Shown: one piece after another, positions 1,494 through 12,475 of the stretch | How positions within the stretch are numbered: position 1 is the first letter of the stretch | Layout of the letters: every line of letters begins with the position of its first letter | DNA from: Fusobacteriaceae bacterium | GTDB taxonomy: Bacteria > Fusobacteriota > Fusobacteriia > Fusobacteriales > Fusobacteriaceae | DNA: 64,000 bases | Reading direction: 5' to 3' | NCBI GenBank assembly: GCA_031272775.1 | Contig: JAISTB010000037.1 | Location: 1-64,000 of the forward strand | Made by a program: the position numbers and the translations under genes | The notes under the pieces: generated by a model | Seen by the model: only the letters and a program-made list of their open reading frames with translations | What the model was told of the DNA's origin: nothing | Database searches by the model: none

Positions 1494-1515
1494 AAAATCT
1501 CTCCTCAAAAACATT

Positions 1516-2799
1516 TTATCCGTAAATCAGATCCGGCAGCCAGGTCACGATTTTCGGGAAAATCAAGGCCAGCGCCAGGGTCAGCAAGATGGTCACAATA
1601 TAGGGGAAAAGCGGTTTGACGACTTTTTCCATCGGTATTTTTCCGATACCGCAGGAAATGAACAAAAATGTCCCCACGGGCGGCGTGATGGCCCCCAATT
1701 GCATGAGGATCACCATGACGACGCCGAAATGGATCGGGTTGAAGCCGAAGGCGTTGCCGATGGCGAGTACTGTCGTCGCGAACATGGCAATGATCACCGT
1801 GGGGTCCAGGAACATGCCGAGGACGATAAAGACCACAAAGAGGAAGAGCACGGCGTAAACGGGGTTTCCCAGCGTCTTCACGGCGAAATCCTGCACTTCC
1901 TTTTGAAAATGGAGCCGGACGAGCACGTTGGACAAAACGCCCGCCGCCGCGATGGTCATGTAGACCACGGACGTCGTCACGGCGGAATCCCTGACGATAT
2001 CGAGGAGATCGGAAATTTTGAGCGTTTTGGAAATCACAAAGCCGTAAAAGAGCCCGTAGAGGATCGCGAGAACGCCGGATTCCGTCGGCGTCACAAAGCC
2101 GAACACAATGCCCGAGAGGATGATCAGCGGCATCAGGAGCGCCCCGAAGGATCTGAAGGCCGTGAGAAAAAAGTTTTTCAGGGAAAACTTTGTCGTAGCG
2201 ATGTGATATCCCCGTTTGATATACACGAGATACACCACAAGCATTTGCATGAGGCCGATGAGGATCCCGGGCCCCACGCCTCCCATAAAGAGCCTGCCGA
2301 TGGGAATTTCCGTATAAAAAGAGTATAAAATAAAGGCTATGCTGGGCGGGATAATCGGTGAGAGCATGGAAGATCCTGCCGTTACGGCCACGGCGTAGTC
2401 TGTGTCATAGCCCTGTTCCTCCATGGCGGGGATCAGCATGCCGCCGATGGCCGCCGCGTCCGCCGCGCCGGAACCCTGGATGCCGCCGAAGAGCATACTC
2501 GTCACGACATTCACGTGGCCCAGTCCCCCTTTGAACGAGCCCACCGCCGCGTTGGCGAAATCCACCAGTTTATCGGTGATTTTGGCCTTCGTGATGATAT
2601 TTCCCGCGATGATGAAATAGGGGATGGCCAGAAGCGAAAGGCTGTTGATGCTGCCGAACATCTTGATGATCGTGAGGTTGAGGGAAATGTTGCCGGCCTT
2701 CAAAAAAATAATGCCCGCCATCAAAAGAGACAGGAAAATCGGGAAACCGAGGAAAATAAAAGCGAGTAAAACAATAAAAATAAACAGCGTCGTCAGCAT
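1516..2799 (-). CDS. dctM: TRAP transporter large membrane subunit DctM
   Basis: 427 very hydrophobic residues forming about a dozen membrane segments. Family hallmarks include GGIQGSGAADAAAIGGMLIP (about residues 104-123) and PPSIAFILYSFYTEIPIGRLFMGG in pieces at about 150-175. DctM is the channel subunit of tripartite ATP-independent periplasmic transporters, which use an ion gradient to import organic acids or sugar acids delivered by a binding protein. Its start overlaps the end of dctQ by 7 bases, implying coupled translation. The length is normal for the family. Confidence 0.95.
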   Translation of the reverse strand: MLTTLFIFIVLLAFIFLGFPIFLSLLMAGIIFLKAGNISLNLTIIKMFGSINSLSLLAIPYFIIAGNIITKAKITDKLVDFANAAVGSFKGGLGHVNVVTSMLFGGIQGSGAADAAAIGGMLIPAMEEQGYDTDYAVAVTAGSSMLSPIIPPSIAFILYSFYTEIPIGRLFMGGVGPGILIGLMQMLVVYLVYIKRGYHIATTKFSLKNFFLTAFRSFGALLMPLIILSGIVFGFVTPTESGVLAILYGLFYGFVISKTLKISDLLDIVRDSAVTTSVVYMTIAAAGVLSNVLVRLHFQKEVQDFAVKTLGNPVYAVLFLFVVFIVLGMFLDPTVIIAMFATTVLAIGNAFGFNPIHFGVVMVILMQLGAITPPVGTFLFISCGIGKIPMEKVVKPLFPYIVTILLTLALALIFPKIVTWLPDLIYG

Positions 2800-3347
2800 G
2801 GTTCATCCTCCCCGGCCGGTTTCGGCTTTTCGCTCCGTCCGGCGCTTTTCCTTCTGGAGAAGGGATGCTCGCCGAAGAGAAAGATCAGCAGATAATCGTA
2901 AAACAAAAACGCGCAGCCGATGGGGATGGCGGCGTAGAACCAGACCGTGGAGAGGGCGATATTCTGCAAATAATTGTCCCGCATGGAGAGCGTGACTTTG
3001 ATTCCGTAGCCTACAAGGACGGCCAGGACCGCCAGAACCGTGAGCTGGGCAACCTTGTCGAGAGCGCTTTTGAAGCGCTTGGGGACGAATTTTTCCACGA
3101 GAAACTGGATGCTGATGTGGGAATTTTCCTTGACGCCGAGACTTGCCGCCAGAAAGGCCAGCCAGATCGCGCACATCCTCAGCAACTCATCCCCCCAGGC
3201 GAAAGGCCGGAGGGATGAGAAACTGCGAATGAAATAGCGCAGGACGATATTCGTTGCCGCGATGCCCACCGCGACCGCCGTGATCAGCACCAGGGCCGTC
3301 AGGCGGAGTCCGTTCAGAAAGGCGTCCAGTTTTTTCAAAAAACCCAT
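2793..3347 (-). CDS. dctQ: TRAP transporter small membrane subunit DctQ
   Basis: 184 residues with four predicted membrane helices, the usual layout of DctQ. An N-terminal helix (LTALVLITAVAVGIAATNIV) is followed by the family-typical stretch WGDELLRMCAIWLAFLAASLG at about residues 50-70 and a further helix pair. The C-terminal tail is charged and cytoplasmic. The ATG at 3347 has an AGGAGG site nine bases upstream. It lies between dctP (51 bases upstream) and dctM (7-base overlap), so the three subunits are co-transcribed. DctQ forms the membrane complex with DctM and is required for transport. Confidence 0.92.
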   Translation of the reverse strand: MGFLKKLDAFLNGLRLTALVLITAVAVGIAATNIVLRYFIRSFSSLRPFAWGDELLRMCAIWLAFLAASLGVKENSHISIQFLVEKFVPKRFKSALDKVAQLTVLAVLAVLVGYGIKVTLSMRDNYLQNIALSTVWFYAAIPIGCAFLFYDYLLIFLFGEHPFSRRKSAGRSEKPKPAGEDEPC

Positions 3348-3398
3348 GATACGGTTCCTCCTGTTGATTTCATTCCGCTGTGATGAGGATGCTTAAAT

Positions 3399-4382
3399 TC
3401 AGTCGATTTTACTCAAATAATCGATGAAGTCGCTCCAGTTCTGTCCCTTTTTCCGGTATTCGTCCAGCATGGGGGCGCAGGCCTTCTTCCATTCGTCGAT
3501 ATCTTTGATTTCCGTCACGATGACGCCGTCTTTTTTCATTTGTTCAAGGGCCTTGCCCTGATCGTCGTCGTCCAGTTTTTCCTGATAGGCCGTTGCCTCG
3601 GCGGCTACTTTCCGGACAAGCTGCTGCAGGTCGTCGGGAAGGGATTCAAACCATTCCGTATTGAAGAAATAATAAATACAGGCGATGATGTGGTTTGTGA
3701 TCGCGAGATTCTTGGCGTTGTCCTGGAACTTGGACGCGTTGAGGGAACTGGGGGAACCTTCGGCGCCGTCCACAACTTTCTGCGAGAGGGCCGTGTAGAT
3801 TTCGTTCCAATCCATGGTGACGCCGGACGCGCCAAGGTGTTCGAACATGCTGATGTAAATGGCGTTGGGTCCCCGCATAACCAGCTTTTGCATGTCCGCC
3901 AGCTTTGTCACGGGTTTTGAGGTCAGGATGTCCCGGGAGCCCTGGGATTGTCCGGCCATGGCCGTAAAGCCTTTTGCTTTGACAAATTCATTGACTTTGG
4001 GTTCCGCGGCCTTCAGGACTCTGCGGTAATGATTGTTGTCTTTGAACATAAAGGGGAACTCAAACATCATCAGGGGTTCGAGGCCTTTATAAGCGCCCGG
4101 TCCCGTTCCGGGGGCGGCTACGACCATCTCCAGGTCCTTCGTGAGCGTCATGGCCACCTGTTCGGCCTGATTCCCGAGCTCGGCGCCGTAGTTGGCCGTC
4201 GCTTTGATTCTGCCCTTGGATTGCGCGTTGATCTGCTCCACAAAATACTTCAGGCCTTTGCCCACCGTGGAACCTTCGGCAAGGTTTGTGGACGTGCGGA
4301 GCGTGTACACTTTTTCCGCGGCGAACAGAGCGCCGGAAATGAGGAATACAAGGGTCAATACTGCTGCAAGCGTTTTCTTCAT
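3399..4382 (-). CDS. dctP: TRAP transporter periplasmic binding protein DctP
   Basis: 327 residues beginning with a signal peptide (MKKTLAAVLTLVFLISGALFAAE, cleavage probably after about residue 21). The mature part has the DctP fold: an early strand with RTSTNLAEGS, a central segment with VMRGPNAIYISMFEHLG carrying the conserved arginine that pairs with the ligand carboxylate, and NEIYTALSQKVVDGAEGS, the family signature. This suggests a carboxylated ligand. The start has CAGGAGG nine bases upstream. It is the first gene of the operon, behind the promoter at 4451-4479. The nearby sugar-type dehydrogenase hints at a sugar acid, which is inference. Confidence 0.93.
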   Translation of the reverse strand: MKKTLAAVLTLVFLISGALFAAEKVYTLRTSTNLAEGSTVGKGLKYFVEQINAQSKGRIKATANYGAELGNQAEQVAMTLTKDLEMVVAAPGTGPGAYKGLEPLMMFEFPFMFKDNNHYRRVLKAAEPKVNEFVKAKGFTAMAGQSQGSRDILTSKPVTKLADMQKLVMRGPNAIYISMFEHLGASGVTMDWNEIYTALSQKVVDGAEGSPSSLNASKFQDNAKNLAITNHIIACIYYFFNTEWFESLPDDLQQLVRKVAAEATAYQEKLDDDDQGKALEQMKKDGVIVTEIKDIDEWKKACAPMLDEYRKKGQNWSDFIDYLSKID

Positions 4383-4530: not shown

Positions 4531-4579
4531 ACATTGGAATGTAAAGGGGAACGAGATGAAAAACACCCGGGAGGCGTCC

Positions 4580-6928
4580 ATGTCCAAGCTGGATCAGAGC
4601 AAAACACCTTTGTTTACGGTACTCAAAGACGTTTATGTCAAAAGGGATATCCTGCCCTTCCACGTGCCCGGGCATAAGCGGGGCAAAGGCGCGGATCCGG
4701 AATTCAGAGATTTTGTGGGCATGGGGCCCCTGACCATGGACGTGACGATCTTTGAGATGGTGGACGGCCTGCACCATCCGACGACCTGCATCAAAGAAGC
4801 GCTGGAACTGGCCGCCGACGCCTACAACGTGAAAAAGAGCTTTTTCGCGGTAAACGGAACCTCCGGAGCCATTCAGGTTATGATCATGTCGGTCATGAAC
4901 TCCGGGGACCAGATCCTTGTCCCAAGAAATGTGCATAAATCCGTAACCGCGGGCATTATCCTCTCCGGCGCGGAGCCCGTCTACGTCAACCCCGAAATCG
5001 ACGAAAATCTGGGAATCGCCAACGGCATTTCCCCCAAGTCCATAGAAACCGCTTTGAAGCAACATCCCGACATCAAAGCGGTCCTGATCATCAATCCCAC
5101 TTATTACGGCGTGGCCACGGACATCAAAAAAATCGCGGGCATCGTGCATGAATACGATATTCCGCTGTTGGTGGACGAAGCCCACGGCCCCCATCTCCAT
5201 TTTCACGACGATCTGCCCACCTCCGCCGTCGACGCGGGGGCCGACATCTGCACACAGAGCACGCATAAAATCATCGGCGCCATGACCCAAATGTCCATGC
5301 TGCACGTCAATTCCGACCGCATAGACATCAACCGGGTGCAGCAGACGCTGAATTTGTTGAGCACCACCTCGCCCTCCTATCCGCTGATGGCCAGTCTCGA
5401 CTGCGCCAGACGGCAGATCGCGACGGAAGGGCGGGAGCTCCTCGACCGGGCCATCAAACTGGCCAGACGCTTCCGGGGGGAAGTCAACCGGATTCCCGGG
5501 ATTTACTGCTTCGGCGAGGAACTGATCGGCAAACCCGGCTTTTTTGCCCTGGATCCCACGAAAATTACCGTAACCGCCAGAGACTTGGGCCTGACCGGCG
5601 CGGATTTGGAGCACATCCTCACGGAAGACTACAATATCCAGATGGAATTATCCGATTTTTATAACGTCCTCGGCCTCATTACGATTGGCGACGACGACGA
5701 AAGCGTCGACCGGCTCATCGGGGCCTTCAGGGATATCAGCCGCCGCTTTTACGGCAAAGAGGACATCCTGAAGCGGGAATTCATCAAGATGCCGCCGATC
5801 CCCGAGGAGATTTTGAACCCCCGGGAAGCCTTCTACAGCGCGAAAAACAAGATCAAATTCGCCGAAAGCGAGGGCAAGATCTGCGGGGAGCTCATCATGG
5901 CCTATCCGCCCGGCATTCCGGTCATCACGCCCGGCGAGCGGATCACCAAGGACATCCTCGACTATGTCCACGACTTGAAAGAAGCCCGCCTCAACGTCCA
6001 GGGTCCCGAGGATCCCGAGCTGGAATATCTCAACGTCATCGAGGAAGACGACGCCGTCTACATCTACGCGGAAAAGATGAAGAGCGTCCTCTTCGGCGTC
6101 CCCATGAATCTGGGCGCCAACCGCTCCGGCATCGAGTTCGGGCCCGAAACCCTCGTCAACACCTATCCTGAGACCTTTGACGAAATGCAGTTTATCGATG
6201 TGGAAAAACAGCGGGAAAACTTCAACGAGTGGAACCTCAAATATAAAAACACGGTCCTCAATACCTGTGAGAAAATCGCGGGCACGGTCTATCAGGCCGT
6301 CAAGGACGGCTACCGCCCCATTACCATCGGCGGCGACCATTCGGTCTCGCTGGGCACAGTCTCCGGCGTCTCCCTGGAAAAGGACATCGGTCTCGTCTGG
6401 ATCGGCGCCCACGGCGACATGAATACGGACAAATCCACGATTACCGGCAATATCAACGGCATGTCGCTGGCGCTCCTGCAGGGAATCGGCGACAGGGACC
6501 TCGTCAACTGCTTTTACGACGGGGCCAAGGTCGACAGCCGGAATGTGGTGATCTTTGGCGTCAGGGACCTCGATTTCAAGGAAAGGGAGATCATCGAGCA
6601 GGTGGGCGTCAAGGTGTTCTGGTACGACGAAATTGCCCAGAAAGGGCTGGAAGCCTCCCTGGAGGAAGTCAGGGACTATCTGAAGACCGAAAATGTCCAT
6701 GTGAGCTTCGATCTGGACGCGTTGTCGCCGGAATACGCGCCGGGCGTCAGCGTTCCGGTCCGCAAGGGCTTCGGGGCCGACGACGTCTTTCAGCTCTTCA
6801 AGTTTTTGTTCAAGACCTATTTCGTGACTTCCATCGATATCGTGGAATTCAACCCCGTTAACGACAAAAACGACATGACGCTGGGCTTTGTCAACGAGCT
6901 TACGAACTATGTGGTCAATCCCGATTAG
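4580..6928 (+). CDS. Fusion of a PLP amino-acid decarboxylase with an arginase-like domain
   Basis: 782 residues from ATG 4580 (GGGAGG five bases upstream); an in-frame ATG at 4556 with GGGGAA is a possible alternative. Residues 1 to about 490 are an Orn/Lys/Arg decarboxylase of the aspartate-aminotransferase fold, with VPGHKRG near the start, the aspartate motif VDEAHGPHLHF and the PLP lysine K230 in STHKIIG. Residues from about 500 are a ureohydrolase of arginase type: GVPMNLGANRSG, GGDHS (H587), FDLDALSPEYAPG (D711, D713) and VEFNP. Two positions are unusual: the metal motif normally D-A-H-x-D reads GAHGD, and the catalytic histidine in G-N-x-H-G is Asn (GNING). The decarboxylase half looks intact; polyamine synthesis (putrescine, cadaverine or agmatine) is likely. 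Whether the second half still hydrolyses arginine is doubtful. Confidence 0.88.
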   Translation: MSKLDQSKTPLFTVLKDVYVKRDILPFHVPGHKRGKGADPEFRDFVGMGPLTMDVTIFEMVDGLHHPTTCIKEALELAADAYNVKKSFFAVNGTSGAIQVMIMSVMNSGDQILVPRNVHKSVTAGIILSGAEPVYVNPEIDENLGIANGISPKSIETALKQHPDIKAVLIINPTYYGVATDIKKIAGIVHEYDIPLLVDEAHGPHLHFHDDLPTSAVDAGADICTQSTHKIIGAMTQMSMLHVNSDRIDINRVQQTLNLLSTTSPSYPLMASLDCARRQIATEGRELLDRAIKLARRFRGEVNRIPGIYCFGEELIGKPGFFALDPTKITVTARDLGLTGADLEHILTEDYNIQMELSDFYNVLGLITIGDDDESVDRLIGAFRDISRRFYGKEDILKREFIKMPPIPEEILNPREAFYSAKNKIKFAESEGKICGELIMAYPPGIPVITPGERITKDILDYVHDLKEARLNVQGPEDPELEYLNVIEEDDAVYIYAEKMKSVLFGVPMNLGANRSGIEFGPETLVNTYPETFDEMQFIDVEKQRENFNEWNLKYKNTVLNTCEKIAGTVYQAVKDGYRPITIGGDHSVSLGTVSGVSLEKDIGLVWIGAHGDMNTDKSTITGNINGMSLALLQGIGDRDLVNCFYDGAKVDSRNVVIFGVRDLDFKEREIIEQVGVKVFWYDEIAQKGLEASLEEVRDYLKTENVHVSFDLDALSPEYAPGVSVPVRKGFGADDVFQLFKFLFKTYFVTSIDIVEFNPVNDKNDMTLGFVNELTNYVVNPD

Positions 6929-6935
6929 GGAACAG

Positions 6936-6973
6936 GATGTGTTTGCCGGATCCGCGGCAAATACATCTTTTTT
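6936..6973 (+). terminator. Rho-independent terminator or attenuator before pyrB
   Basis: A 13-base-pair stem pairs 6936-6948 with 6955-6967 (one G-U pair) around a 6-base loop and is followed by six T. It begins 8 bases after the fusion gene stop and ends 30 bases before the pyrB start, leaving no room for a promoter between. It therefore either stops the upstream transcript or works as an attenuator controlling read-through into the pyr operon. Confidence 0.75.
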
Positions 6974-7002
6974 ATGAAAACAACGCAGACAAGGGAGGGA
7001 AA

Positions 7003-8082
7003 ATGAGAAGTTTTTTATCGATCAAAGACCTTACGACGTCGGAAATTTACGGAATTCTCGATCTTGCCAAGCAGCTCGCCCTGCATACGATGCCCGACAT
7101 CCTCGCCGGTCGGATCATCGGGAGCCTGTTTTTTGAGCCCTCCACGAGGACGCGGCTTTCCTTCATCTCTGCCGCCTACCGGGTCGGGGCCCAGGTCCTC
7201 GGTTTTGATTCCCCCGACGCCAGTTCCATCAAAAAAGGGGAATCCCTGCGGGATACGATCAAGATGGTCGAGGCCTATACCGACGCCATCGTGATGCGCC
7301 ACTCCATCGAGGGGGCCGCCAAATTCGCCGCGGAGATCTCAAAGGTCCCCATATTGAACGCCGGCGACGGGGCCAATGAACACCCCAGTCAGACGCTTCT
7401 CGACCTTTACACGATCAAAGAGGAACTGGGGACCCTGGAAAATCTCAAAGTGGCCTTTGTGGGCGACATGAAGTACGGCCGTACCGTCCATTCCCTCGCC
7501 AAAGCCCTCGCCAATTTCGGCTGCGAGTTTTATTTCGTCGCGCCGGAACTGATCCAGATCCCCTCCCACATCACGCAGGAACTGAAAAGCAGGGGCGTTC
7601 GCTATACGCTTTTGCGCAATTACGAGGATATCCTGCCCGAAATCGACATCCTCTACATGACGCGGATCCAGCGGGAGCGTTTCGACAATCCCGACGAATA
7701 TCAGCAGGTCAGCGGCGTCTACCAGATCGACCGGGAGCGGATTCTCGGAAAATGCAAAGATGAGATGATCATTCTCCATCCGCTGCCCCGGGTGGACGAG
7801 ATCGCCATCGACCTTGACGACACGAAGCACGCCCGCTACTTCCAGCAGGCGGCAAACGGTATTCCGATCCGCTCGGCCCTCTTTGTGGCGGCGCTGGAAA
7901 TCAAGCCCATCGGCCCCGCCAAAGAAGCGAAAGAGGAAGAAAATCAGAGCGTCATTGCCTGCGAGCGTTCCAAGTGTCAAAACATCATGTGCGTCACCCA
8001 CTACGAGCAGACGAAAAACAAGATTCTGAGAACCTCCTACGGCGATTTTTGCTATTACTGCGGCAAGGAAATCCCGGGATGA
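7003..8082 (+). CDS. pyrB: Aspartate carbamoyltransferase with a C-terminal PyrI-like zinc domain
   Basis: 359 residues from ATG 7003 (AAGGGAGGG six bases upstream). An in-frame ATG at 6937 lies in the terminator stem and is less likely. PyrB joins carbamoyl phosphate and aspartate, the first committed step of pyrimidine synthesis. The carbamoyl-phosphate motif FEPSTRTRLSF is at about residues 42-52, followed by GDGANEHPSQTLLDLYT, MTRIQRERF and the C-terminal HPLPRVDEI. The catalytic part ends near residue 305. The tail has C320-x4-C325-x24-C350-x2-C353, close to the zinc site of E. coli PyrI, but the nucleotide-binding half of PyrI is absent. It is the first gene of pyrBKDFCE. Confidence 0.95.
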   Translation: MRSFLSIKDLTTSEIYGILDLAKQLALHTMPDILAGRIIGSLFFEPSTRTRLSFISAAYRVGAQVLGFDSPDASSIKKGESLRDTIKMVEAYTDAIVMRHSIEGAAKFAAEISKVPILNAGDGANEHPSQTLLDLYTIKEELGTLENLKVAFVGDMKYGRTVHSLAKALANFGCEFYFVAPELIQIPSHITQELKSRGVRYTLLRNYEDILPEIDILYMTRIQRERFDNPDEYQQVSGVYQIDRERILGKCKDEMIILHPLPRVDEIAIDLDDTKHARYFQQAANGIPIRSALFVAALEIKPIGPAKEAKEEENQSVIACERSKCQNIMCVTHYEQTKNKILRTSYGDFCYYCGKEIPG

Positions 8083-8129
8083 GCATATAAAAAAGAAAAC
8101 AAATATAGTTTATGATAAAAGGAGGCCCC

Positions 8130-8951
8130 ATGTTTTTAGAAAACGCCGCGGTACTGGCAAACGCCAGGGTCGCGGAGAATAAATACCTGATGAAAGTCGT
8201 CTCTCCGAAGACGGTCGGAGCGGCGAAGCCCGGGCAATTTTACATGCTCCGCTGCAAAGACGATTATTTTACGCTGCGAAGGCCGGTCAGCGTCCACGGC
8301 GCCGACGCGCTTACCAACGTTCTCGAATTCTACTATGAAGTAAAGGGGGCGGGAACCCGGGATTTGGCCGGATTTGCGCCCGCCGACGGCATAGAAATCC
8401 AGGGCCCGCTGGGAAAAGGCTTCACGACCGCGGAAAAAGGCCGGGAGCTTCTGGTGGTAGGCGGCGGAATGGGGCTTGCCCCGATGAAATACCTGACGGA
8501 GATCCTCAAGCGGGACAATAACGTGACGCTGGTCGCCGGCGGCAGAGACGCGGAGGCCCTGCGGATCTTAAGCAATTTCGATCTCACGGGGATATCGGTC
8601 TTCGTCACTACGGACGACGGCGCCGTGGGCGCAAAGGGGACCGTGATTCCCAAGGTTTCCGAGCTTTTGAGCGAAAAAAAATACGACCGGATCTATGTCT
8701 GCGGCCCCGCGCCCATGATGATCCTCGTGGGTCAGCTGGCCCTGGCCGAGCGCGTCCCCTGCGAGATTTCCATGGAATCGCGGATGGCCTGCGGCGTCAA
8801 GGCCTGTGTGGGCTGTTCCTTCCTGACCAACGAGGGCATGAAGAAGGTCTGCGCCGACGGCCCGGTCTTCGACGGGACGCTGATTCGGGAGATCAACAAT
8901 ACCGAACAAAAAAATTGCGGGACCTGCGGATGCGCGGGGGAGGTGAAGTGA
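8130..8951 (+). CDS. pyrK: Dihydroorotate dehydrogenase electron-transfer subunit
   Basis: 273 residues from ATG 8130 with AAAGGAGG upstream; the ATG at 8112 precedes that site and is unlikely. It is a ferredoxin-reductase-like protein: an FAD part with LRRPVSVHG at about residues 50-58, an NAD-binding part with VVGGGMGLAPMKYL at about 108-121, and a [2Fe-2S] cluster motif CGVKACVGCSF followed by VCADGPVF near residue 235-265. PyrK passes electrons from PyrD to NAD+. The C-terminal tail NCGTCGCAG adds three cysteines beyond the usual cluster. Its stop overlaps the pyrD start, so the two subunits are translated together. Confidence 0.95.
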   Translation: MFLENAAVLANARVAENKYLMKVVSPKTVGAAKPGQFYMLRCKDDYFTLRRPVSVHGADALTNVLEFYYEVKGAGTRDLAGFAPADGIEIQGPLGKGFTTAEKGRELLVVGGGMGLAPMKYLTEILKRDNNVTLVAGGRDAEALRILSNFDLTGISVFVTTDDGAVGAKGTVIPKVSELLSEKKYDRIYVCGPAPMMILVGQLALAERVPCEISMESRMACGVKACVGCSFLTNEGMKKVCADGPVFDGTLIREINNTEQKNCGTCGCAGEVK

Positions 8952-9883
8952 TGTCGGCATTACGGACGGAATTTTTGGGCGTAACGATGAAAAACCCGGT
9001 CGTTACGTCATCGGGCTGCTTCGGTTTCGGCCTCGAATACAGGGACTATTTTGATCCCGACCTCCTGGGCGGCATCGGCCTCAAGGGGACGACCCTGAGC
9101 GCCCGTACGGGAAATATGGGGACCCGGGTTACGGAAACCCCCGCCGGTATGCTCAACACCGTGGGTCTGGAAAATCCCGGCGTTCACTATGTCAAAGACG
9201 CGACGATTCCGGAAATCCGGGCGGCGGGCGTCAAAGCGCCGTTGATTTTCAACATGAGCGGCAGTACCTTGGACGAGTATGTGGAAATGGCCAAAATCGT
9301 CGATACCATAGCCGACGTGGCCATTGTGGAGCTCAATATCTCCTGTCCCAACGTGAAGGACGGCGGCATGGCCTTCGGCGCCAACCCTTGCGCGGCGGGG
9401 GACGTGACGGCGGCGGTCCGCAGACAGACGAAAAAACCCCTTGTGGTGAAGCTCACGCCCAACGTGACCGACGTGGCCGCCATTGCCAAAATCGTCGAAG
9501 AAGCGGGGGCGGACGGGATTTCTGTGATCAACACGCTTTTGGGCATGGCCATCGACGTGCGGACGAGAAAGCCCGTCCTCGGCAATATCTTTGGCGGACT
9601 CTCGGGACCCGCGGTAAAACCGGTCGCCCTGCGAATCGTATACCAGGTATACAAAGCCGTCGGAATCCCCATCGTGGGCATGGGCGGCATTTCGTCGACG
9701 GAGGACGCCCTGGAGTTTATCTTCGCGGGGGCGACGCTTGTGTCCATCGGGACGGGAATATTCAAGAATCCGCTCCTGCCCGTGGAGATCATCGAGGGGC
9801 TTGAAAAATACTGCGCGGACAACGGGATTGCCAATATAAGCGAGCTCGTCGGAGCGGCGCATAAAGGAGAGGTGAAGGTATGA
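8951..9883 (+). CDS. pyrD: Dihydroorotate dehydrogenase, NAD-linked catalytic subunit
   Basis: 310 residues, a TIM barrel binding FMN. The start at 8951 shares one base with the pyrK stop. Motifs are NPVVTSSGCFGFG near the N-terminus, NISCPNVKDGG at about residues 130-140 holding the class 1B active-site cysteine, and the phosphate-binding end GMGGISSTEDALEF. Class 1B enzymes work as a PyrD-PyrK heterotetramer and reduce NAD+, which suits an anaerobe; the adjacent pyrK confirms the class. The stop overlaps the pyrF start by 4 bases. Confidence 0.96.
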   Translation: MSALRTEFLGVTMKNPVVTSSGCFGFGLEYRDYFDPDLLGGIGLKGTTLSARTGNMGTRVTETPAGMLNTVGLENPGVHYVKDATIPEIRAAGVKAPLIFNMSGSTLDEYVEMAKIVDTIADVAIVELNISCPNVKDGGMAFGANPCAAGDVTAAVRRQTKKPLVVKLTPNVTDVAAIAKIVEEAGADGISVINTLLGMAIDVRTRKPVLGNIFGGLSGPAVKPVALRIVYQVYKAVGIPIVGMGGISSTEDALEFIFAGATLVSIGTGIFKNPLLPVEIIEGLEKYCADNGIANISELVGAAHKGEVKV

Positions 9884-10596
9884 CGGACGGCAGGGAACGC
9901 ATGATCGTGGCGCTGGATTTTCCATCCTATGAAAAGGCCCATGATTTTATCGAAAAATTGGGGGATCACGTGGGGTTTTACAAAGTGGGGCTTGAGCTTT
10001 TTCTCAATTCCCGGGGCAAAATCGTCGAATTTTTGAAGGAAAAGAAAAAGCGGATCTTTCTCGATCTGAAATTTCACGACATCCCCAATACGACGGCCCA
10101 GGCCGCGGTATTCGCGGCGAATCAGGACGTCTTTATGTTCAATGTCCATGCGGGGGGCGGCAAGAAAATGATGAAAACCGTCGCGGAGGAAGTGAGGAAA
10201 GTGAACCCGAAGACGCTCTTGATCGCGGTGACCGTATTGACCAGCATTTCCGAAGCGGAAGCTCGGGAGACCTTTCATTCGACCCTGGACATCAAAGCCC
10301 TGGCCGTCAATCTCGCCCGGCTCACAAAAGAAGCGGGTTTGAACGGCGTCGTCTGCTCGCCCTGGGAAGCGGCCGAAATCAAGAAGGAAATCGGGCGGGA
10401 CTTTGTGACGGTCTGCCCCGGCATCCGGCTCAAGGACAACGCTACCGATGATCAGGAGCGGATCATGACGCCTTGGGACGCCATCAAAAGCGGCTGCGAC
10501 TACCTTGTGATCGGACGCCCGGTGACAAAGGCCGAAGATCCGCTGACAGCCGCCGATACCATCGCCCGGGACATCGAACGGGCTCTGGAGGCGTGA
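9880..10596 (+). CDS. pyrF: Orotidine 5'-phosphate decarboxylase
   Basis: 238 residues, normal for the family. It converts OMP to UMP. The catalytic motif is FLDLKFHDIPNTT at about residues 58-70, with the Asp-Lys-Asp catalytic set in D-x-K-x-x-D-I form. Earlier MIVALDFPSYEKA holds the first catalytic aspartate, and the C-terminal DYLVIGRPVT binds phosphate. Its ATG overlaps the pyrD stop (ATGA) and pyrC follows after 4 bases. Confidence 0.96.
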   Translation: MTDGRERMIVALDFPSYEKAHDFIEKLGDHVGFYKVGLELFLNSRGKIVEFLKEKKKRIFLDLKFHDIPNTTAQAAVFAANQDVFMFNVHAGGGKKMMKTVAEEVRKVNPKTLLIAVTVLTSISEAEARETFHSTLDIKALAVNLARLTKEAGLNGVVCSPWEAAEIKKEIGRDFVTVCPGIRLKDNATDDQERIMTPWDAIKSGCDYLVIGRPVTKAEDPLTAADTIARDIERALEA

Positions 10597-10600
10597 GGCC

Positions 10601-11839
10601 ATGCTCGTCAAAAACGCCAGACTCATCACAGCCGAAAACAAAGAAATCCTGCGGGATATTCTGATCACCGCGGGGCTTATCACAAAAATCGAAGCGTCGA
10701 TACCCGAAACGGAAGCCCGGGACGGGGAGGTCCTTGACGCAGGCGGAAAGCTCGTCCTTCCGGGCCTTGTAGACCCCCACACCCATATGCGGGACCCCGG
10801 TCTCACCCACAAGGAGGATTTTTCGACCGGGAGCCTTGCCGCCGCGAGAGGGGGCGTGACTGTATTTCTCGATATGCCGAATACTTCTCCGGCCACAATC
10901 ACCCCGGAGATTCTCGAAGAGAAAAAGAAACAGGCTGTCGGACGCGCCTGGGTGGACTACGGCTTTTATTTCGGCGGCTCAAAATCCGACAACAGCGCCG
11001 AAATTCCCAAGACCTGGGGAAAAGTGGCGGCCACAAAGGTATTTTTAAACGTCTCCACCGGCGATATGCTCGTGGAGGATGTGGCGGTCCTCGAGCGGAT
11101 CTTCCGGAACTCGAAATTGGTGGCCGTCCACGCCGAAGGCGACATGGTCCACAGAGCCATTGATCTTTGCGAAAAAACCGGCGTTCCCCTCTATCTCTGC
11201 CACCTGTCCCTGGCCTCGGAAGTGCAGGCGCTCGCCGCCGCCAAGGCCAAGGGCCTTCCGGTCTACGGCGAAGCGACGCCCCATCACCTCTTTCTCACCG
11301 GGGAAGACCGGGAAAAAGACGGATATACGCGGCAATTCCTGCGGATGAAGCCCGAGCTCAAGGAAAAAAGCGACGTCGACTGTCTCTGGCGGGCCATACA
11401 GGAGGGCGTCATCGATACGATCGGGACGGACCACGCGCCACATACCCTGGAAGAAAAAACCGCGAAGCTGACCTCGGGCGTTCCGGGCGTCGAGCACAGT
11501 CTCGAGATGGTCCTGCGGGCCGTGGAGGAAGGAAAAATCACCCTCGCGAGGCTGACGGAACTGATGTCGGCAAAACCCGCCGAAATCTTCGGCATCGCGG
11601 GGAAGGGCGGCATAAAGCCAGGGAACCACGGGGATCTTGTCATCGTGGATACGAGGGACCACAGTCTGATCGGAGAGGACAAAATCATTTCCAAATGCGG
11701 CTGGACGCCCTACGCCGGATTCAAGCGGGGCGGGCGGGTGTTGACGACGGTCCTTCGCGGCCGGGTCGTCTATGACCGGGGAAATTTTTCCGGGCCCTGG
11801 GGCCGGGAAGTCACCTACAACAACTCAAGCGACGAATAA
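10601..11839 (+). CDS. pyrC: Dihydroorotase (class I, amidohydrolase)
   Basis: 412 residues. It closes carbamoyl aspartate to dihydroorotate, the second step of the pathway. The zinc motif DPHTHMRDPG is at about residues 58-67, VHAEGD and YLCHLS supply later histidines, and GTDHAPHTLEEK at about residue 290 is the conserved aspartate-histidine block. The metallo-dependent hydrolase ends with the small beta domain (GDLVIVDTRDHS). The length and the position between pyrF and pyrE separate it from hydantoinases and allantoinases. Confidence 0.95.
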   Translation: MLVKNARLITAENKEILRDILITAGLITKIEASIPETEARDGEVLDAGGKLVLPGLVDPHTHMRDPGLTHKEDFSTGSLAAARGGVTVFLDMPNTSPATITPEILEEKKKQAVGRAWVDYGFYFGGSKSDNSAEIPKTWGKVAATKVFLNVSTGDMLVEDVAVLERIFRNSKLVAVHAEGDMVHRAIDLCEKTGVPLYLCHLSLASEVQALAAAKAKGLPVYGEATPHHLFLTGEDREKDGYTRQFLRMKPELKEKSDVDCLWRAIQEGVIDTIGTDHAPHTLEEKTAKLTSGVPGVEHSLEMVLRAVEEGKITLARLTELMSAKPAEIFGIAGKGGIKPGNHGDLVIVDTRDHSLIGEDKIISKCGWTPYAGFKRGGRVLTTVLRGRVVYDRGNFSGPWGREVTYNNSSDE

Positions 11840-11851
11840 ACGGAGGAAAAA

Positions 11852-12475
11852 ATGAATAAAGAAAGCGCAATTGCCGAGGCTTTGTTAAAAACCGGCGCCG
11901 TCAAACTCAATGTGAAGACGCCCTTCACGTTTGTATCGGGCATCAAAAGCCCGATTTACTGCGATAACAGACAGATGATCGCCCATCCCGCCGAGCGCAG
12001 GCTCTTTGTGGAGGCCTTTCTGGAAAAACTGAAGGGAAAGGACTACGATATCCTCGCGGGCACGGCCACGGCGGGCATTCCCTGGGCCGCCTTCCTCGCT
12101 TGGGAGACCGGCAAGCCCATGAGCTACATCCGGGCCGAGAAGAAGGACCACGGCGCGGGAAAACAGGTCGAAGGGGCCGATCTTGCGGGGAAAAACGTCA
12201 TCATCATCGAAGATCTGATCTCCACGGGAGGGAGTTCCCTGAAGACCGTGGAGGCCGCTTTTGACGCGGGCGCGGCAAACGTATCGGTTTTGGCCGTCTT
12301 TTCCTATGAATTTCCCAAGGCCGAAAAAGCCTTCGCGGAAAAGGGCGTCAAATGGGAGACCATATCGAATTTCCCGGCCCTCATTGCCATCGCCTGTGAA
12401 AAGAACTACCTCACGAAGGAGGAGGCCGACGCGGCCTCGGCGTGGAACAAGGCCCCCGACAGCTGGGGAAGATAG
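11852..12475 (+). CDS. pyrE: Orotate phosphoribosyltransferase
   Basis: 207 residues. It links orotate to PRPP to make OMP. The PRPP-binding motif is VIIIEDLISTGGSSL at about residues 116-130, and the flexible-loop lysines lie in YIRAEKKDHGAGKQ. ATG 11852 has CGGAGG upstream, 12 bases after pyrC. It is the last pyrimidine gene; ftsY follows after 16 bases. No carAB, pyrR or pyrH is seen in the window. Confidence 0.96.
   Translation: MNKESAIAEALLKTGAVKLNVKTPFTFVSGIKSPIYCDNRQMIAHPAERRLFVEAFLEKLKGKDYDILAGTATAGIPWAAFLAWETGKPMSYIRAEKKDHGAGKQVEGADLAGKNVIIIEDLISTGGSSLKTVEAAFDAGAANVSVLAVFSYEFPKAEKAFAEKGVKWETISNFPALIAIACEKNYLTKEEADAASAWNKAPDSWGR

What the first reader, a model, noticed from the sequence alone, without database searches (positions are those of the whole stretch)
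4580..6928. Decarboxylase fused to an arginase domain that has lost a metal ligand and the catalytic histidine
The N-terminal half has an intact PLP decarboxylase (K230 in STHKIIG). The C-terminal half aligns to arginase, with GGDHS, FDLDALSP and VEFNP in order. In arginases the metal motif is D-A-H-x-D and the proton-shuttle histidine is in G-N-x-H-G; here they read GAHGD and GNING. So the positions of rat D124 and H141 are Gly and Asn. The domain may be a non-catalytic arginine sensor or scaffold, use an altered metal site, or have a new substrate. Fusing it to a decarboxylase points to polyamine control.
Basis: partly seen in the sequence, partly recalled or inferred. Interest (0 to 1): 0.72.

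Follow-up and report, generated by a model that had tools for sequence, protein, structure and literature searches.

The report
Putrescine enzyme with likely dead arginase half
This gene makes a known two-part enzyme of the Fusobacteriaceae (an ornithine decarboxylase joined to an arginase); in this one species the arginase half has lost two key residues that its closest relatives keep, which looks like another, independent case of an arginase loss already described in mouth fusobacteria.

Summary
ORF 4580-6928 (+, 782 aa) is an ornithine decarboxylase (PLP lysine K230) fused to an arginase domain in which the metal-bridging Asp (rat D124; residue 609) is Gly and the proton-shuttle His (rat H141; residue 626) is Asn. 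All other metal ligands and most substrate contacts remain. The architecture is not new: it is ODA, known in Fusobacteriaceae, with the F. nucleatum arginase domain solved (PDB 8d27) and reported inactive through other substitutions (Ser609, Asn713). What is new is where and how the site is lost. Of 51 fusion sequences compared, 46 keep every metal ligand and the His, including both congeners at the same pyr-operon locus (86 and 83% identical domains). The tree needs three separate losses: the oral clade, this species, and genus g10 (L059, far more decayed, yet also G609/N626). Here each change is one nucleotide and the rest of the domain is conserved. The genome keeps argCBDF, so ornithine for the decarboxylase need not come from arginine. 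Most likely the decarboxylase works and the arginase half is a weak or dead passenger or scaffold. An arginine-sensor role is possible but untested. New variant of a known kind, modest interest.

The parts
4580..6928 (+). oda: ornithine decarboxylase/arginase fusion, 782 aa (an in-frame ATG at 4556 is an alternative start; 4580 matches the start of the relatives)
4604..5698 (+). OKR_DC_1 decarboxylase major domain (residues 9-373) with PLP lysine K230
   Evidence: Pfam 316 bits; K230 in STHKIIG, conserved in the relatives shown
5267..5269 (+). codon of the PLP lysine K230
5798..5989 (+). OKR_DC_1_C decarboxylase C-terminal domain (residues 407-470)
   Evidence: Pfam 40 bits
6083..6892 (+). arginase-family domain (residues 502-771)
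   Evidence: Pfam 191 bits; 8d27 415 bits; model matches 8d27 with TM 0.93
6404..6406 (+). codon GGC = G609, the place of the Mn-bridging Asp (rat D124)
6455..6457 (+). codon AAC = N626, the place of the proton-shuttle His (rat H141)
6937..12475 (+). pyrB, pyrK, pyrD, pyrF, pyrC, pyrE directly downstream (8 nt from the oda stop to the pyrB ATG); same order in the sister species L002

Best explanation
This is the Fusobacteriaceae ornithine decarboxylase/arginase (ODA). The N-terminal half makes putrescine from ornithine (inferred from orthology to the assayed F. nucleatum enzyme). In this species the C-terminal arginase half has recently lost the Asp that bridges the two Mn ions and the catalytic His, so arginine hydrolysis is expected to be absent or very weak (inferred). 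The loss is tolerated because the cell can make ornithine through argCBDF (genes shown, flux inferred). The folded domain is kept as part of the fused protein, as a structural passenger or scaffold. It is an independent repeat, with different substitutions, of the arginase loss known in oral Fusobacterium.
For: Fusion and fold. Loss confined to this species, both congeners intact at a syntenic locus. Tree: window + L015 100/100, with L016 100/100; oral clade g4 its own clade 100/100; L059 on a deep separate branch. No second arginase-family gene in the genome. argC, argB, argD, argF over NCBIfam cut-offs, argH present, no arginine deiminase. Domain still constrained: dN/dS 0.068 against the sister (decarboxylase 0.043), 14 polarised changes against 12 on the sister branch. 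F. nucleatum precedent for a dead arginase half with a sufficient ODC half: PMC12826042 and PMC8503589.
Against: No activity was measured. Each Mn site still has three protein ligands (MnA H587, D613, D711; MnB H611, D711, D713), so weak metal binding or residual activity is possible. Both congeners have the same arg genes and keep the active site, so ornithine synthesis does not by itself explain the loss. Strong conservation of the rest of the domain could mean an active non-catalytic role rather than a passenger.
Confidence: 0.68

Rival explanations
1. The site is altered but not dead: it binds one or two metals with the remaining ligands and keeps low arginase activity, or works on another guanidino or amidino substrate.
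For: Five of six metal ligands and the contacts N130, D183, E186 and E277 are kept. Unlike F. nucleatum, D234, D181 and D183 are also kept.
Against: The bridging Asp serves both metals and is Asp in all 46 intact fusions, and the proton-shuttle His is lost as well. No new conserved acidic residue appears nearby in the alignment.
Confidence: 0.14
2. The domain has become a non-catalytic arginine or ornithine sensor that regulates the fused decarboxylase.
For: Substrate contacts are kept while two catalytic residues are lost, and the domain is not clearly decaying. The same G609/N626 pair arose separately in L059.
Against: L059 has also lost N615, H611, D613 and D665, so its pocket is not preserved. 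In F. nucleatum the ODC half alone restores growth and has similar activity to the whole protein (PMC12826042, PMC8503589). Without metals the guanidinium site is incomplete.
Confidence: 0.12
3. The two residues are sequencing or assembly errors in a draft genome.
For: Draft genome of 41 contigs; no second genome of the species is held, so the bases could not be checked against reads.
Against: Two independent substitutions, no frameshift or stop, 99% complete and 0.09% contaminated genome, while the rest of a 782-codon gene is conserved.
Confidence: 0.05

Closest known systems
Ornithine decarboxylase/arginase (ODA, oda) of Fusobacterium nucleatum; arginase domain PDB 8d27
   Same: Same two-domain order and length; decarboxylase half about 75% identical to the sequenced oral-clade members; arginase half 415 bits to 8d27. 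Also lost residue 609 of the arginase site.
   Different: F. nucleatum has Ser609 and Asn713 and keeps the catalytic His; this protein has Gly609 and Asn626 and keeps Asp713, Asp663 and Asp665.
ODA of the two congeneric MAG species G050 (JAISST, Md513_bin107) and G051 (JAITPM, Pq454_bin26)
   Same: Orthologues by sequence (88 and 83% over the whole protein) and by position beside the pyr genes.
   Different: Both keep DAHGD and GNIHG, so a full arginase site.
Bacterial arginases (Bacillus RocF type; PDB 6nbk, 6nfp, 1cev)
   Same: Same fold and motif order.
   Different: Free-standing, with an intact dinuclear Mn site and catalytic His.
Trypanosoma brucei arginase-like protein without a Mn cluster (Hai et al. 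2015; known here only as cited in PMC8503589)
   Same: An arginase fold kept without the metal site.
   Different: Eukaryotic, not a fusion; its paper is not held, so residues were not compared.

Membership tests
Fusobacteriaceae ODA fusion | AAT-fold ornithine decarboxylase with PLP lysine at the N-terminus | tested here: met
   OKR_DC_1 316 bits; K230. Substrate preference not measured.
Fusobacteriaceae ODA fusion | C-terminal arginase-fold domain in the same chain | tested here: met
   PF00491 191 bits; model TM 0.93 to 8d27
Fusobacteriaceae ODA fusion | Found in Fusobacteriaceae only | tested here: met
   Full-length fusions only in family f1 among 98 genomes of the phylum; literature says the same (PMC8503589)
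Catalytic arginase | Complete dinuclear Mn site (H101, D124, H126, D128, D232, D234) | tested here: not met
   D124 is Gly609; the other five are kept
Catalytic arginase | Proton-shuttle His (H141) in GNxHG | tested here: not met
   Asn626
Catalytic arginase | NCBIfam rocF_arginase (TIGR01229) curated cut-off | tested here: not met
   185.7 bits against 227.6; not scored for the intact congeners, so this alone does not separate them
Catalytic arginase | Mn-dependent hydrolysis of arginine to ornithine and urea | not testable with these tools
   needs purified protein
F. nucleatum-type inactive ODA | Ser609 and Asn713 | tested here: not met
   Gly609 and Asp713
F. nucleatum-type inactive ODA | Shares one loss event with the oral clade | tested here: not met
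   The congeners that group with it at 100/100 are intact

The most novel reading that the evidence does not exclude
ODA is a system in which the arginase half repeatedly loses catalysis (at least three times) yet is kept folded because it has a second, non-catalytic job, such as sensing arginine or ornithine or holding the decarboxylase assembly; this species caught the change early, with only the catalytic residues gone.
Probability: 0.2. Interest if true: 0.55.

Novelty: new variant of a known kind. Interest (0 to 1): 0.33.

Why it matters
The published loss was tied to oral Fusobacterium species. An independent loss by other substitutions in a different genus, with intact sister species for comparison, shows that the arginase half is dispensable for catalysis more widely, and gives a natural three-species set (one lost, two intact, same locus) for asking why the domain is kept.

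Tried and rejected
Full-length AlphaFold model: pLDDT 41, unusable, so domain arrangement could not be judged. The arginase-domain model (pLDDT 78) is poor at residues 16-55 and at 123-127 next to the active-site loop, so metal geometry was not read from it. Arginine deiminase as ornithine source: no PF02274 match in this genome. A link between arginase loss and arg genes: none strict, since the congeners and genus g9 have argF and an intact site while the oral clade lacks argF and lost it. Shared ancestry with the oral-clade loss: rejected by the tree plus intact congeners. Strong relaxation: domain-to-decarboxylase branch ratio is 1.65 here, 0.84 in the sister and 0.24 in G051, but the count test is not significant (Fisher p 0.33). 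Clustering of 2 of 5 rare changes in the active site: P 0.03 to 0.10 depending on how many residues are called active-site, only suggestive. dS is about 1.3-1.6 to the sister and saturated beyond it, so the loss could not be dated. The group labels printed used a wrong column for H101 and marked all rows 'dead'; the tree is unaffected and the residues were recounted. The 2022 Biochemistry paper on F. nucleatum ODA and the T. brucei paper are not held.

Full report
Observation. The ORF at 4580-6928 (+) encodes 782 aa with an Orn/Lys/Arg decarboxylase (Pfam 316 bits) and an arginase domain (191 bits). The decarboxylase lysine K230 is in place. The arginase half aligns without gaps in the key blocks to PDB arginases and reads GAHGD and GNING where arginases read DAHGD and GNIHG. 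Residues 609 and 626 are therefore Gly and Asn in place of rat D124 and H141. All other metal ligands are present.

Known family. [quoted passage not shown] nucleatum. PMC8503589 reports that such fusions occur only in Fusobacteriaceae, that the F. nucleatum protein is an ornithine decarboxylase, and that its arginase half is unlikely to be active because two Asp are Ser and Asn. [quoted passage not shown] My search of 98 genomes of the phylum found full-length fusions only in the same family.

Where the loss lies. I compared 51 fusion sequences of the family. 46 keep Asp at 609, His at 626 and all other metal ligands. The five exceptions are three oral-clade sequences (genus g4: Ser609, Asn713), the window, and L059 from genus g10 (Gly609, Arg611, Gly613, Asn626, Gly713). 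The two congeners of the window, G050 and G051, are intact and sit beside the same pyr genes. In the tree the window pairs with G050 (100/100) and then G051 (100/100), the oral clade is separate (100/100), and L059 branches deeply, though on a long branch. Three losses are the fewest that fit. The window and L059 share Gly609 and Asn626 by convergence.

State of the domain. Of 106 arginase columns invariant in 40 intact fusions, the window changed five: I589V, V605L, D609G, H626N, K766M. Polarised changes are 14 on the window branch and 12 on the sister branch. Amino-acid branch ratios hint at mild relaxation (1.65 against 0.84 and 0.24) but the count test is not significant. So the domain is still under constraint or the loss is recent; the data cannot tell these apart. 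L059, by contrast, changed 22 of those 106 columns and has the longest arginase branch, yet its reading frame and its decarboxylase lysine are intact.

Source of ornithine. The genome has one arginase-family gene and no arginine deiminase match, but it has argC, argB, argD and argF in a row, all over their NCBIfam cut-offs, and argH. No argJ was found; a M20-family hydrolase lies near the cluster but fits no arg equivalog. Ornithine synthesis is thus likely but not proven complete. Both congeners have the same four genes, so this permits the loss but does not explain why it happened only here.

Mechanism. Shown: the fusion, the two substitutions, their restriction to this species, and the arg genes. 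Inferred: the decarboxylase makes putrescine; the arginase half is inactive or nearly so; it is kept as a folded passenger or scaffold. The claim of inactivity rests on the general role of the bridging Asp and proton-shuttle His in arginases (established knowledge) and on the F. nucleatum precedent. Three ligands per metal site remain, so residual activity is a real rival. A sensor role is not excluded but has no positive evidence.

Verdict. Observation confirmed; interpretation partly supported; a new variant of a known kind.

Noticed in passing
L059 (genome G044, genus g10), 1513-3858: A third ODA with a far more degraded arginase site (GARSG, GNIN, SFDFG) but an intact frame and intact decarboxylase lysine; shares Gly609 and Asn626 with the window.
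   Followed up: partly
window 6937-8082: Aspartate carbamoyltransferase with a Cys-rich tail of about 60 aa that weakly resembles the PyrI zinc domain (PF02748 E 0.019, below cut-off).
   Followed up: partly
window 4580-12475: oda lies 8 nt upstream of a pyrBKDFCE run, conserved with G050 and, as far as its contig was read, G051; the pyr genes were not found beside oda in the other genera examined. Possible co-transcription of putrescine and pyrimidine genes.
   Followed up: partly
alignment column 605 (window codon 6392-6394): Val605 is Leu in the window, L059 and two of the three oral-clade sequences, all with a lost site, and Val or Ile in the rest; it lies four residues before the lost Asp.
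   Followed up: no
L056 (genome G012), 289-aa ORF: A free-standing arginase about 60% identical to the ODA arginase half, without the decarboxylase in the same frame; may be a split or an unfused relative.
   Followed up: no
window 1516-4382: A complete TRAP transporter set (dctM, dctQ, dctP) on the opposite strand upstream of oda, conserved in the sister species L002.
   Followed up: no
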